A DNA stretch of 64,000 nt, from positions 1 to 64,000 of the forward strand of contig JANYEQ010000102.1 of NCBI GenBank assembly GCA_025363015.1, written 5' to 3'. Below, piece after piece: positions 48,809-53,618 of this stretch. Source of the stretch: Bacteroidota bacterium. Its GTDB lineage: Bacteria > Bacteroidota > Bacteroidia > B-17B0 > Aurantibacillaceae. The translations under genes and the position numbers were made by a program. Position 1 is the stretch's first letter; each line of letters begins with the position of its first letter. The notes under the pieces are model-generated. The model was given only the letters and a program-made list of their open reading frames with translations, searched no databases and had not been told where the DNA came from.

Positions 48809-50167
48809 TTATTGATTAATAACTTTTACAGTTTTTGTATTGCTATTGTTATCTGTAATTCTTACAAAATAATTACCAACAGCTTGGTTAGTTAAATCAA
48901 TGGTAACAGCAGTATTAGTAGATGTTTGAGTTAACACTACGGCACCTAACATATTATATACAGCAATGGTGTTGCTACCTTCTAAATTTGCAATGGTAAT
49001 TTTACCATTAACGGCAGGGTTAGGATACACTAAAATATTGGCATTTAAAGCATTGTTTTTTAAACCTACTGAACAGTTTGATGGAGAAATTACCCAATTT
49101 TTTTGATCAGTAACAGTGGTAGGTAATACTGTTGTAGATTTTACTGCCGACATTTTTACATAATTGGCTGTTAAGCTACCATTAAAAGTTCCAGCTGTAG
49201 TGTATGTTTTAGCAGGACTAGCCGCATTTGATATTGCAGAACCATCAGCAAAATTCCAAGAATAAATAGGACTTACTGTTGGAGGAGTGTTACCATAAGG
49301 CGTCCAATAAGGCACAAACTGATTAAAATTAAATTGACGGTTAGTTAACCAACTTGAGCTTGTATTTGTATACGTAATGCTAGTATTTGTACAAATGGTA
49401 GTTTGTGTAACAGCATGGTTAGCTGTAAGGTTAAAGCCTACACGAGGGGCTACCATATATTCTACATCAGATGTACCACCCGTTGTAGGTAAGTTAAATT
49501 GCCCAGTAGTTGTAGTAAATGTACCTGAACTGCTTAAACGTAAAAAACCAAAACCTTCGCCATATTTACAAGCAGTTAATGTTGTAGTAGATGAAGCTGT
49601 GTTAGCATTATTCATAAACGGTTTAATGGTATCGCCTACAGTATAACCACCACGAATTAATACAGCAAAATCGCCAGTAATAATTTTTGGAACTAAAAAG
49701 TTACCACCAACAAAAGCACCTGCTGTACCTGTTAATACTGCAGCAACCGAATCTATTGCTGGAAAAACAGGAAAACCTGCACTTACATTACATAAATACA
49801 TCATTGCTGTAACAGTAGCATTAGTAGAAGATGCTTTGCGCGAAGCAATACCCTCTAAACCTGTAACCGTAATAGTGCCAGTATTAGCAAAACGCGAGCC
49901 CATATGCGTTACACCACCACCTGGCGATTGATAGGTGTAAAAACCTGTACCTGAAGCATTACGATACACATGTTTTTTATAAAAATACCAAAGTGTATCT
50001 TGTACTAATGCTGCCGATGTTTTTTCATTAACCGTGGCATGAGTTAAATTGTAGCTTTTGTTTGCTGGGTTAAATTCAGCAGGCTGAGCCACAAACTGCG
50101 ATTGTGCATTAATTGCACCAATAGTTGTTACTGTTACTGCAACAACCGAAAGTAATTTTTTTATCAT
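48809..50167 (-). CDS. T9SS type A sorting-domain protein with PKD-like domain
   Basis: PKD-like IYSWNFADGSAISNAASPAKTYTTAGTF; C-terminal ILVYPNPAVNGKITI...VGNYFVRITDNNSNTKTVKVINQ. Confidence 0.85.
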   Translation of the reverse strand: MIKKLLSVVAVTVTTIGAINAQSQFVAQPAEFNPANKSYNLTHATVNEKTSAALVQDTLWYFYKKHVYRNASGTGFYTYQSPGGGVTHMGSRFANTGTITVTGLEGIASRKASSTNATVTAMMYLCNVSAGFPVFPAIDSVAAVLTGTAGAFVGGNFLVPKIITGDFAVLIRGGYTVGDTIKPFMNNANTASSTTTLTACKYGEGFGFLRLSSSGTFTTTTGQFNLPTTGGTSDVEYMVAPRVGFNLTANHAVTQTTICTNTSITYTNTSSSWLTNRQFNFNQFVPYWTPYGNTPPTVSPIYSWNFADGSAISNAASPAKTYTTAGTFNGSLTANYVKMSAVKSTTVLPTTVTDQKNWVISPSNCSVGLKNNALNANILVYPNPAVNGKITIANLEGSNTIAVYNMLGAVVLTQTSTNTAVTIDLTNQAVGNYFVRITDNNSNTKTVKVINQ

Positions 50168-50252: not shown

Positions 50253-50876
50253 TTATGCTTTTAACAGTTTATGGCTATTTAAACCAATATTAAATAAAGC
50301 ATCTAAAATACTTAGGTTGGGAGTAAAATTAAATTTGGCTTCAAACGTTTGATAGTATGGTGTGTTTAAAAACCCGCATGCAGTAGTATCATCACTAAAA
50401 TTTATTTTTGGATGAATAATTTGACGTAAATCAATAGCATCCGTTATTTGTTTTTGATAATGGGTAGTAAAATTAAGTGGTATGGGTTGTTTTAATAGTT
50501 TTAAAATTAACTGTAACTGATTTATATTAAACTGAAACAAGTGTTGAAATGGCCTTGTATAAAATTGTTTTAAATCGGTTTCAAAAAACTCAAAGTATGG
50601 CGAATTTTTATAGGCGCTTTCAATAGCTCGCCAATGGTTTTTTTGCCAATTTTCTTTGTAACAAATTTCAACATTGGTAATTAGTAGCGCGTTATTATTT
50701 TTAATAATAGGAATAGATAAATTTAAAACGCCATTTGCACTTAGCAGTTGAGTACGGTTTCTATAACTTTGTTTTTGATAGTTTTCGTGCTGCTCAATAG
50801 TTATACTTTGGGCATTAAATAGGTAATAAAAATAATGCAAATTGGGTAAATACGCCGCGCTTAAAACAACATTCAT
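50253..50876 (-). CDS. WbqC-family protein
   Basis: AAYLPNLHYFYYLFNAQSITIEQHENYQKQSYRNRTQLLSANG typical of WbqC-like proteins. Confidence 0.87.
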   Translation of the reverse strand: MNVVLSAAYLPNLHYFYYLFNAQSITIEQHENYQKQSYRNRTQLLSANGVLNLSIPIIKNNNALLITNVEICYKENWQKNHWRAIESAYKNSPYFEFFETDLKQFYTRPFQHLFQFNINQLQLILKLLKQPIPLNFTTHYQKQITDAIDLRQIIHPKINFSDDTTACGFLNTPYYQTFEAKFNFTPNLSILDALFNIGLNSHKLLKA

Positions 50877-51766
50877 TTTTTTGCTTTTTTAATGGTGCCA
50901 ATTACTTTACCCACAATATAACTTTGTGGTAAAAATCCCCACACTCTGCTATCATTAGCGTTATCGCGGTTATCAGCCATAACAAAATAATAGTTGTGCT
51001 TTACTACATATTGTTTTGTGAGGATATTATTTATAAAAATACTATCGTTACTAATTACTAAGGTATTGTTTTCGTATTGCTCAATTATTATTTTGTATAC
51101 ATCTATACTTAACGAATCTAACTGTAAGGTATCATTTTTTTTAGGGATATACAATTTGCCATAATTGTCTTTATTCCAAGGATAATGCAACGAAAAGGGG
51201 AAGCACGTAATATCAAAATTGTTTTTACTTAAACTTTTTAATTCTATTTTTTTTATGTTTTGATTTTCAGTTAAACTATCGGCTTGTGTTTTTGTTAGCG
51301 AAAAATTATAATCAAACTCGTTACTAATTGAGCCACCTTGGGTTAATTGGTAACGCATTTTAAATGCCGAATCTATTTTATATTTATCGGTTTTAAAGTA
51401 ATAATTATGTTTTATGGTTGAGGTATCGTTTAATTCAATACCATTTACAATTACTAATTTATCTTTAATTTCTAGGCTATCGCCCGCAACGGCTACTATA
51501 CGCTGTACAAAATAAGTGCTGGCACCACCAGTATCTTTTATTGGGTATTTTAAATACACACAATCGTTTACTTTATAATTATTAGCAAATTTTTTAATAA
51601 ATAACACATCCGCATAATTATAGGTGCTTTGCATATCGTTAGCGTTTACACTAACAATATCAAATAAAAAAAATTTAGTAATAATAAATAGCGCCAATGC
51701 AGTTAAAGCACTAATAAACCATTTTAGCTGTTTTATAAAATTGAATATGTGTTTTAATTCAGACAT
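50873..51766 (-). CDS. Signal peptidase I paralog lacking canonical catalytic residues (putative pseudoenzyme)
   Basis: S26 fold boxes recognisable (NANDMQSTYNYADVLFIKKF, YFVQRIVAVAGDSLEIKDKLVIVNG, YYFVMADNRDNANDSRVWGFLPQSYIVGKVIG), but Ser, Lys and box-E Ser positions are D, Q and A. Start at MSELKH. Confidence 0.85.
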   Translation of the reverse strand: MSELKHIFNFIKQLKWFISALTALALFIITKFFLFDIVSVNANDMQSTYNYADVLFIKKFANNYKVNDCVYLKYPIKDTGGASTYFVQRIVAVAGDSLEIKDKLVIVNGIELNDTSTIKHNYYFKTDKYKIDSAFKMRYQLTQGGSISNEFDYNFSLTKTQADSLTENQNIKKIELKSLSKNNFDITCFPFSLHYPWNKDNYGKLYIPKKNDTLQLDSLSIDVYKIIIEQYENNTLVISNDSIFINNILTKQYVVKHNYYFVMADNRDNANDSRVWGFLPQSYIVGKVIGTIKKAKK

Positions 51767-51836
51767 TAAATTAATATGTAACACTGATAATTGTATGGTT
51801 TACATTTAAAATGTTCAATGCCTAACTAATACTACC

Positions 51837-53618
51837 TTATTTCTTCTCTTTTTCTAACTTTAACTTACGGCGGTTGTTCCACTTATTAAAGCCCCAAATA
51901 CCCAGCACACCAATTATAAATGGAATTTTTATAGAGTGTAAATTACCATCATCTACATAACATAAAAAACGTTCCCATCTAAATTTACCTTCTTTACTGT
52001 TTTTGGTTAATGATTTTAGTACCGATTTGCCACTTACTGGATTATTTTCGGCATACTTCATACTAAACCATACAAAAAACGGCGAACCTACTATATGATC
52101 AAAAGGCACCAAGCCCCAACTACGACTATCGGCAGAGTTATGGCGGTTATCGCCCATCATAAAATAATAATTTTGTTTAAACGTATAACTTGTAATGGGT
52201 TTGCCATCGTAAAGCACCTGTGCCCCTTGTTTAGTTACCTGGTGTAAACCATCATCATACGTATCTAACACTTTTTGATACAAACAAATATTATGAGTAT
52301 CAATAGGCACAGTTAAACCCTCTTTTGGCATTAATAATGGGCCAAAGTTATCGTTATTCCATGGGTACGAAGGGTTGTGAGGAAAAATACGACTATCGTA
52401 ATAATTTTTAAGTTCTACTTTTAAAGTTACACTGTACACTCCGGCTAATGCTTTTACTTTTTCAACAGTAGCCTGCGGCATGTTTAAATCGTAATAATTT
52501 GTATCGTTAGGCCCATTAATTTTACCAGCTTCTGACACATAAATATCTAATTCATCTAATAAATTATAATTAGATAAAGTGTGTTGACCATTTGTACCTG
52601 TTCCGTTTTCGCCAAACAACGCCTCTTTAGTTTTTACAATGTAACGGTGTTGGGCATTTTTAGGCATTTCTTGCTTAATGTTATTTATGTGAACTTCGCC
52701 GTTAATTACCGAAAAATTATCGCCTGCTATTGCCACACAGCGTTTTACATAATGTTCGCGCTTATCCACCGGACGCGCAACAATAGAACCAAAAATATCT
52801 TCTTGTGAATTAACATAATCCCAACTTGTTTTGTAAGCTTGGGCATAAGTCATATTTTTATTTTGTTCCATAGCATATTCCACATTATCTCTAACAATTT
52901 GGTAATAACTTTGGTTTTGTTGTTTAAGCGCCACGGTATCGCCATCTGGATAATTAAATACTACTATGTCGTTATTTTTTACTGAGCCAAAACCTGGCAA
53001 ACGCATATAAGGCAATTTAATCCATTCTAAATACGATTTTTTTGTTTCGCTTAATGGCAAGGTGTGATGGGCAAACGGAAAGGCTAGAGGGGTTTGCGGA
53101 ATTTTTGGGCCATAAGCAAATTTATTTACGAATAAAAAATCGCCTACCATTAAACTTTTTTCTAACGAAGAGGTAGGGATTGTAAACGCTTCAATAAAAT
53201 ACCCACGAATGATAGAAGCGGCAATTACTGCAAAAACAATTGGGTCAATCCAGTTTTTAATAAGTTTACTGGGTTCAATTTTAAATTTACTTAAGCCTAC
53301 AAATTTGGCGGTATCATCAAACCCTAATTTTACAAAAAAAAGATAGGGCAACAACGAAGCAAAAATTAAATCGTTATTACTGGGTTTATTAAATGCGCGT
53401 GCTACATTAAAGCCATATACGCCATACATTAAAATATTTACACCTGGCACTGCCATAATAATGCACCACCACCAGGGTTTATTTAAAAGTTTGGAGAGGC
53501 AATAAAAATTATAAAAAGGCACAAAACCTTTCCAACTTTCTATACCTGCTTTTGCAAATAATTTACTTAAACCAAAAAACGAGGCTAATACTAATGCTAA
53601 AAAAATAATGTTTCCCAT
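51837..53618 (-). CDS. lepB: Signal peptidase I (canonical catalytic residues) with N-terminal membrane domain
   Basis: TIPTSSLEKSLMVGDFLFVNKFAYG, HYVKRCVAIAGDNF, MMGDNRHNSADSRSWG. Confidence 0.93.
   Translation of the reverse strand: MGNIIFLALVLASFFGLSKLFAKAGIESWKGFVPFYNFYCLSKLLNKPWWWCIIMAVPGVNILMYGVYGFNVARAFNKPSNNDLIFASLLPYLFFVKLGFDDTAKFVGLSKFKIEPSKLIKNWIDPIVFAVIAASIIRGYFIEAFTIPTSSLEKSLMVGDFLFVNKFAYGPKIPQTPLAFPFAHHTLPLSETKKSYLEWIKLPYMRLPGFGSVKNNDIVVFNYPDGDTVALKQQNQSYYQIVRDNVEYAMEQNKNMTYAQAYKTSWDYVNSQEDIFGSIVARPVDKREHYVKRCVAIAGDNFSVINGEVHINNIKQEMPKNAQHRYIVKTKEALFGENGTGTNGQHTLSNYNLLDELDIYVSEAGKINGPNDTNYYDLNMPQATVEKVKALAGVYSVTLKVELKNYYDSRIFPHNPSYPWNNDNFGPLLMPKEGLTVPIDTHNICLYQKVLDTYDDGLHQVTKQGAQVLYDGKPITSYTFKQNYYFMMGDNRHNSADSRSWGLVPFDHIVGSPFFVWFSMKYAENNPVSGKSVLKSLTKNSKEGKFRWERFLCYVDDGNLHSIKIPFIIGVLGIWGFNKWNNRRKLKLEKEKK

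What the first reader, a model, noticed from the sequence alone, without database searches (positions are those of the whole stretch)
50873..53618. Tandem signal peptidase I genes: one canonical, one apparently catalytically dead
Seen directly: LepB-1 keeps TSSLEKSL, YVKRCVAIAGD and GDNRHNSADSR. The 303-aa paralog has NANDMQST where the nucleophilic Ser should be (S to D), YFVQRIVAVAGD where the general-base Lys should be (K to Q), and ADNRDNANDSR in box E (S to A). Loss of all three functionally linked residues with the fold motifs intact argues for a retained pseudoenzyme rather than random decay. By inference it could act as a partner, substrate-binding or regulatory subunit of the adjacent active LepB, or a diverged enzyme.
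Basis: partly seen in the sequence, partly recalled or inferred. Interest (0 to 1): 0.72.

Follow-up and report, generated by a model that had tools for sequence, protein, structure and literature searches.

The report
Conserved dead signal peptidase beside lepB
Right after its working signal-peptide-cutting enzyme, this bacterium carries a sister copy that has lost the residues needed to cut but has been kept, with the same two replacement residues, across many related species, so it probably does a non-cutting job such as holding or regulating secreted proteins.

Summary
LepB (51837-53618) keeps the catalytic S151/K292 and box-E S495. The adjacent 303-aa S26 paralog (50873-51784, more likely 297 aa from ATG 51766) has D50/Q94/A276 at those places. 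It is not decay, a strain quirk or a sequencing error. In 43 orthologs from three genera of one family of Bacteroidia, Asp is kept in 42 and Gln in 42; only box E is free to vary. The lepB beside it is always S/K/S. dN/dS between close orthologs is 0.04-0.17. A 97-row alignment gives a confident SPase fold (pLDDT 95.7), and no alternative Ser/Lys pair is conserved. The gene sits in a conserved lepB - paralog - wbqC array and usually overlaps wbqC by ATGA. Active sister copies in neighbouring genera show that catalysis was lost after duplication. Independent losses occur at the same place in other Bacteroidota: one common origin is rejected (p-AU 0.021), and in an unbiased survey dead copies occur only beside an active S26. 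Catalytically dead SPase I paralogs are known in Gram-positives (SpsA; SipA, also Ser to Asp), so this is a new variant of a known kind. The partner or peptide-binding role is inferred, not shown.

The parts
51837..53618 (-). LepB-1: canonical type I signal peptidase, 593 aa, N-terminal DUF5684 membrane domain + S26 domain; S151 (codon 53166-53168), K292, box-E S495
50873..51784 (-). LepB-2: catalytically dead S26 paralog (303 aa from GTG; 297 aa from ATG at 51766)
51635..51637 (-). GAT, Asp50 in place of the catalytic Ser nucleophile
51503..51505 (-). CAG, Gln94 in place of the general-base Lys
50957..50959 (-). GCT, Ala276 in place of the box-E Ser
50253..50876 (-). WbqC-family gene, conserved third member of the array
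50873..50876 (-). ATGA overlap: TGA stop of the dead paralog and ATG start of wbqC (translational coupling inferred)

Best explanation
The 303-aa gene encodes a membrane-anchored periplasmic pseudo-signal-peptidase. It is an old Bacteroidota second SPase I paralog (LepB-2) that lay between lepB and wbqC, lost its Ser/Lys dyad once in this lineage (Ser to Asp, Lys to Gln), and has since been kept by selection. Shown: fold, loss of the dyad, fixation of Asp/Gln, purifying selection, conserved array lepB - dead copy - wbqC. Inferred: it still offers the SPase peptide-binding groove (positions lining S1/S3 stay hydrophobic; the Met after the nucleophile and the Arg after the base are invariant) and works without cutting. 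It would bind signal peptides or emerging pre-proteins beside the co-expressed active LepB, as an accessory, specificity or regulatory subunit or holding factor. My split: pseudoenzyme with a selected function about 0.93; that function being direct cooperation with LepB or LepB substrates about 0.45.
For: Asp 42/43 and Gln 42/43 in D/Q-lineage orthologs of three genera, each next to an S/K/S lepB where that gene is in the contig. dN/dS 0.042-0.167 for 15 close ortholog pairs, of the order of the neighbouring lepB. Order lepB - dead - wbqC in nearly every locus, with an ATGA or TAATG/TGATG junction to wbqC in 29 of 48. AF2 model pLDDT 95.7, pTM 0.89, best solved matches E. coli LepB and the pseudo-SPase SipA. 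Sister copies in genera g25, g27, g28, g29 and g33 are S/K/S. Outside this family, second copies with a broken dyad also sit next to an active lepB (L100, L109, L112, L116, L272, L285, L320). In the 80-locus survey 3 of 7 tandem second copies are dead against 0 of 22 readable single S26 genes. Precedent for function without catalysis: SipA (PMC4049620).
Against: No physical or genetic evidence of an interaction. One same-genus genome (G003) lacks the copy, with lepB running straight into wbqC, so it is dispensable somewhere. Distance correlations do not single LepB out from WbqC as co-evolving partner (partial r 0.59 against 0.50). The constant neighbour of LepB-2 across the class is wbqC rather than lepB. 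Loss only beside an active copy is also what simple redundancy would give.
Confidence: 0.55

Rival explanations
1. Retained pseudoenzyme whose job belongs to the wbqC side of the array (envelope glycan biosynthesis or a WbqC-linked function) rather than to LepB.
For: S26-wbqC adjacency is wider than lepB-lepB2 adjacency: LepB-2 copies not seen beside a lepB also precede wbqC (L071, L081, L085, L088, L097, L177, L179, L180, L202); ATGA coupling.
Against: wbqC also follows single lepB genes (L083, L114, L115, many), so the adjacency looks like general operon history. Dead copies were never seen without an active S26 beside them where the region is covered.
Confidence: 0.2
2. Active but unorthodox peptidase using Asp50/Gln94 or other residues.
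For: Asp and Gln are almost invariant although the rest has diverged to about 45% mean identity, so these two residues matter.
Against: No conserved alternative nucleophile/base pair: the invariant residues are structural S26 ones. In SipA the equivalent Asp could be mutated to Ala or Ser without effect on function, and no peptidase activity was seen (PMC4049620). A g31 relative has A/S/A (L200).
Confidence: 0.07
3. Recently dead duplicate decaying neutrally, or a sequencing/assembly error.
For: The copy evolves faster than lepB (45% against 70% mean identity), and box-E Ser is lost.
Against: The same D/Q is found in dozens of independently assembled genomes; dN/dS is far below 1; frames are intact; fold residues are invariant.
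Confidence: 0.03
4. Decoy or buffer: the dead copy titrates signal peptides or SPase-directed natural inhibitors (arylomycin type) away from LepB.
For: SPase fold with a probably preserved groove and likely co-expression with lepB.
Against: Nothing tested here; a decoy would need high expression and would not explain the fixed Gln.
Confidence: 0.08

Closest known systems
Streptococcus pyogenes SipA/LepA (PDB 4n31, 4k8w)
   Same: Membrane-anchored SPase I fold with the nucleophile Ser replaced by Asp, Lys dyad partner lost, peptide cleft kept, essential non-catalytic role in pilus assembly (PMC4049620). Found by sequence and by fold.
   Different: Lys is replaced by Gly (Gln here); lies in a pilus/sortase cluster of a Gram-positive; small non-catalytic domain; not beside an active lepB as far as I know.
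Staphylococcus aureus SpsA next to SpsB
   Same: Inactive SPase I paralog in the same genome as an active one; review PMC12445088 lists it as inactive, lacking two catalytic residues. Adjacency to spsB is from memory.
   Different: Different phylum and probably independent origin; the residues at its active site were not checked here.
Canonical Bacteroidota LepB-1/LepB-2 pairs (e.g. Flavobacterium L101, L104; genus g28 L191)
   Same: Same tandem lepB-lepB2 arrangement with wbqC downstream and similar domain layout.
   Different: Both copies keep Ser/Lys/Ser.

Membership tests
Type I signal peptidase (S26A), as a fold family | S26 profile match over the curated cut-off | tested here: met
   PF10502 93.6 bits (cut-off 22.9), TIGR02227 99.2 bits (cut-off 47); all 30 rows of A1
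Type I signal peptidase (S26A), as a fold family | SPase fold with N-terminal membrane helix and box E DNRxNxxDSR | tested here: met
   AF2 pLDDT 95.7, helices 2-19 and 21-40; Foldseek to E. coli LepB E 3e-7; box E conserved
Active type I signal peptidase | Ser nucleophile and Lys general base | tested here: not met
   Asp50 and Gln94; 42/43 and 42/43 in orthologs
Active type I signal peptidase | Box-E Ser next to the dyad | tested here: not met
   Ala276 here; variable in orthologs
SipA-type pilus assembly factor | Ser to Asp at the nucleophile, Lys lost | tested here: met
   compared with PMC4049620
SipA-type pilus assembly factor | Encoded in a sortase/pilin cluster | tested here: not met
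   Nearest neighbours are lepB, wbqC and cob adenosyltransferase
SpsA-type inactive SPase paralog | Dead copy directly beside an active SPase I | tested here: met
   for this protein; SpsA's own adjacency is from memory
SpsA-type inactive SPase paralog | Common descent with SpsA | not tested
   SpsA sequence not fetched; this clade sits inside Bacteroidota LepB-2, so an independent origin is expected

The most novel reading that the evidence does not exclude
Bacteroidota repeatedly turn the second signal peptidase of the lepB-lepB2-wbqC array into a non-catalytic subunit, so that their SPase I works as a heteromer of an active LepB and a dead substrate-selecting or regulatory LepB-2: a bacterial counterpart of a multi-subunit signal peptidase complex.
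Probability: 0.25. Interest if true: 0.75.

Novelty: new variant of a known kind. Interest (0 to 1): 0.5.

Why it matters
Type I signal peptidase is treated as a one-protein enzyme in bacteria. A selected, catalytically dead paralog fixed next to it in a whole lineage, and arising more than once at the same place, suggests that part of Bacteroidota processes or holds exported proteins with a second non-cutting subunit. Neighbouring genera give a natural series (S/K/S, then diverged S/K/S or A/K/S, then D/Q), so the step from peptidase to pseudopeptidase can be studied directly.

Tried and rejected
Chance or error: rejected by orthologs and dN/dS. Alternative Ser/Lys pair: none conserved. One common origin of all dead Bacteroidota S26 copies: rejected, p-AU 0.021; one origin of D/Q within the family is not rejected, p-AU 0.437. 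Distance-correlation test for the LepB partner: not discriminating. The profile A3 built from other dead copies mostly returned active enzymes, so I switched to a survey anchored on wbqC. Papers on inactive SPases in Bacteroidota: none found in the library.

Full report
Observation. The two genes lie on the - strand at 51837-53618 and 50873-51784. Both belong to S26 by Pfam and NCBIfam, well over the curated cut-offs, and are 28% identical over 223 residues. In an alignment that includes E. coli LepB, LepB-1 has Ser/Lys/Ser and the paralog Asp/Gln/Ala. The likelier start is ATG 51766 (297 aa), because orthologous reading frames end there.

Orthologs. The window's genome is an unnamed Bacteroidia assembly (3.33 Mb, 143 contigs) with three S26 genes; the third (L064) is S/K/S on another contig. 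In the window's genus 34 orthologs were read: Asp at the nucleophile in 33 (Gln in L037), Gln at the base in 33 (Gly in L059); box E mostly Ala, sometimes Ser, Val, Cys or Gly. Two further genera of the family, g30 (6 loci) and g26 (3), carry D/Q/A at the same locus. That makes Asp 42/43, Gln 42/43, both 41/43. (The 42/42 for Gln is by selection of the rows; the count given here is not.) A g31 relative has a shorter copy that I read as A/S/A between lepB and wbqC (L200, by eye). The lepB next to them was S/K/S in every case where the region is covered.

Selection. Among close ortholog pairs dN/dS is 0.042-0.167 (one further pair, from the S/K/S genus g32, gave 0.219). This is of the order of lepB in the same genomes, though the paralog diverges faster in the long run (mean identity 45% against 70%). 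Unconstrained pseudogenes would not show this.

History. In a tree without the three catalytic columns the family's accelerated LepB-2 copies form one clade with full support (39 rows). It groups with canonical S/K/S second copies of genera g28 and g33, and more distantly g27 and g29. Genus g32 copies in the same clade are diverged but mostly S/K/S (one A/K/S, L183). The D/Q copies as one clade are not rejected (p-AU 0.437). The LepB-1 part of the tree puts g32 outside the other genera. The simplest reading is acceleration first, then one loss of the dyad. This order is inferred.

Neighbourhood. The order lepB - paralog - wbqC is kept in essentially all D/Q loci where the contig reaches. The stop of the paralog overlaps or abuts the wbqC start (ATGA 22, TAATG 4, TGATG 3 of 48 loci, g32 included). 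In G003 the paralog is cleanly missing and lepB is followed by wbqC, so it is dispensable in some lineages. The LepB-2/wbqC link is older than the family, since active LepB-2 copies without a neighbouring lepB also precede wbqC.

Recurrence. Other Bacteroidota have second copies with a broken dyad next to an active one: L100 K/K/A, L109 with a degenerate nucleophile and Met at the base, L112 G/S/S and R/S/P on either side of an active gene, L116 N/S/A. To avoid the bias of that search I sampled 80 wbqC loci of the class outside this family. Thirty have S26 upstream; of 7 tandem pairs 3 second copies are dead (L272 and L285 G/S/L, L320 A/S/S), and of 22 readable single copies none. The nominal Fisher p is about 0.01 by my own calculation, but the rows are not independent (L272 and L285 are one family). 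A single origin of all dead copies is rejected (p-AU 0.021), with the caveat of long branches.

Structure. AlphaFold2 on the 97-row alignment gives pLDDT 95.7 and pTM 0.89. Foldseek finds E. coli LepB first (E 3e-7) and the pseudo-SPase SipA with TM 0.77-0.79 by the length of SipA. No coordinates were available, so the Asp-Gln distance and the shape of the groove were not measured. By alignment the groove positions stay hydrophobic (E. coli I87 to V/I, I145 to I/F/L/V, Y144 mostly F; annotated-ORF numbering), and M51 and R95 are invariant. Which positions line the groove is from knowledge of the E. coli enzyme. No other Ser/Lys pair is conserved.

Meaning. Known pseudo-SPases show what such a protein can do. 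SipA has Asp and Gly at the dyad, no peptidase activity, and is needed for pilus assembly; its Asp can be replaced without loss (PMC4049620). SpsA is described as inactive (PMC12445088). What is new, as far as the library shows, is its presence in Bacteroidota, the fixed Asp/Gln pair, the lepB-lepB2-wbqC setting, and the recurrence. Cooperation with LepB, directly or through shared substrates, is my preferred mechanism at about 0.45; the shown part stops at 'selected, non-catalytic SPase-fold protein likely co-expressed with LepB'.

Noticed in passing
L112:3037-6732: An active lepB flanked on both sides by S26 copies with broken dyads (G/S/S upstream, R/S/P downstream), followed by wbqC.
   Followed up: partly
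L272:3070-4116, L285:3106-4071, L320:835-1776: A second lineage of dead S26 copies (G/S/L, A/S/S) between active lepB and wbqC in two other families of Bacteroidia.
   Followed up: partly
L183, L184, L186, L189, L190: Genus g32 second copies are strongly diverged yet mostly keep Ser/Lys/Ser (A/K/S in L183): possible intermediate stage.
   Followed up: partly
window 51837-53618: LepB-1 has an N-terminal DUF5684 membrane domain fused to the S26 domain.
   Followed up: no
window 48809-50167: Secreted protein with a C-terminal domain that looks like a type IX secretion sorting domain, just downstream of wbqC; homologs follow wbqC in several same-genus loci.
   Followed up: no
L106:758-2371: A Flavobacteriaceae LepB with Thr at the nucleophile (IPTSTLEKT), Lys and box-E Ser kept.
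   Followed up: no
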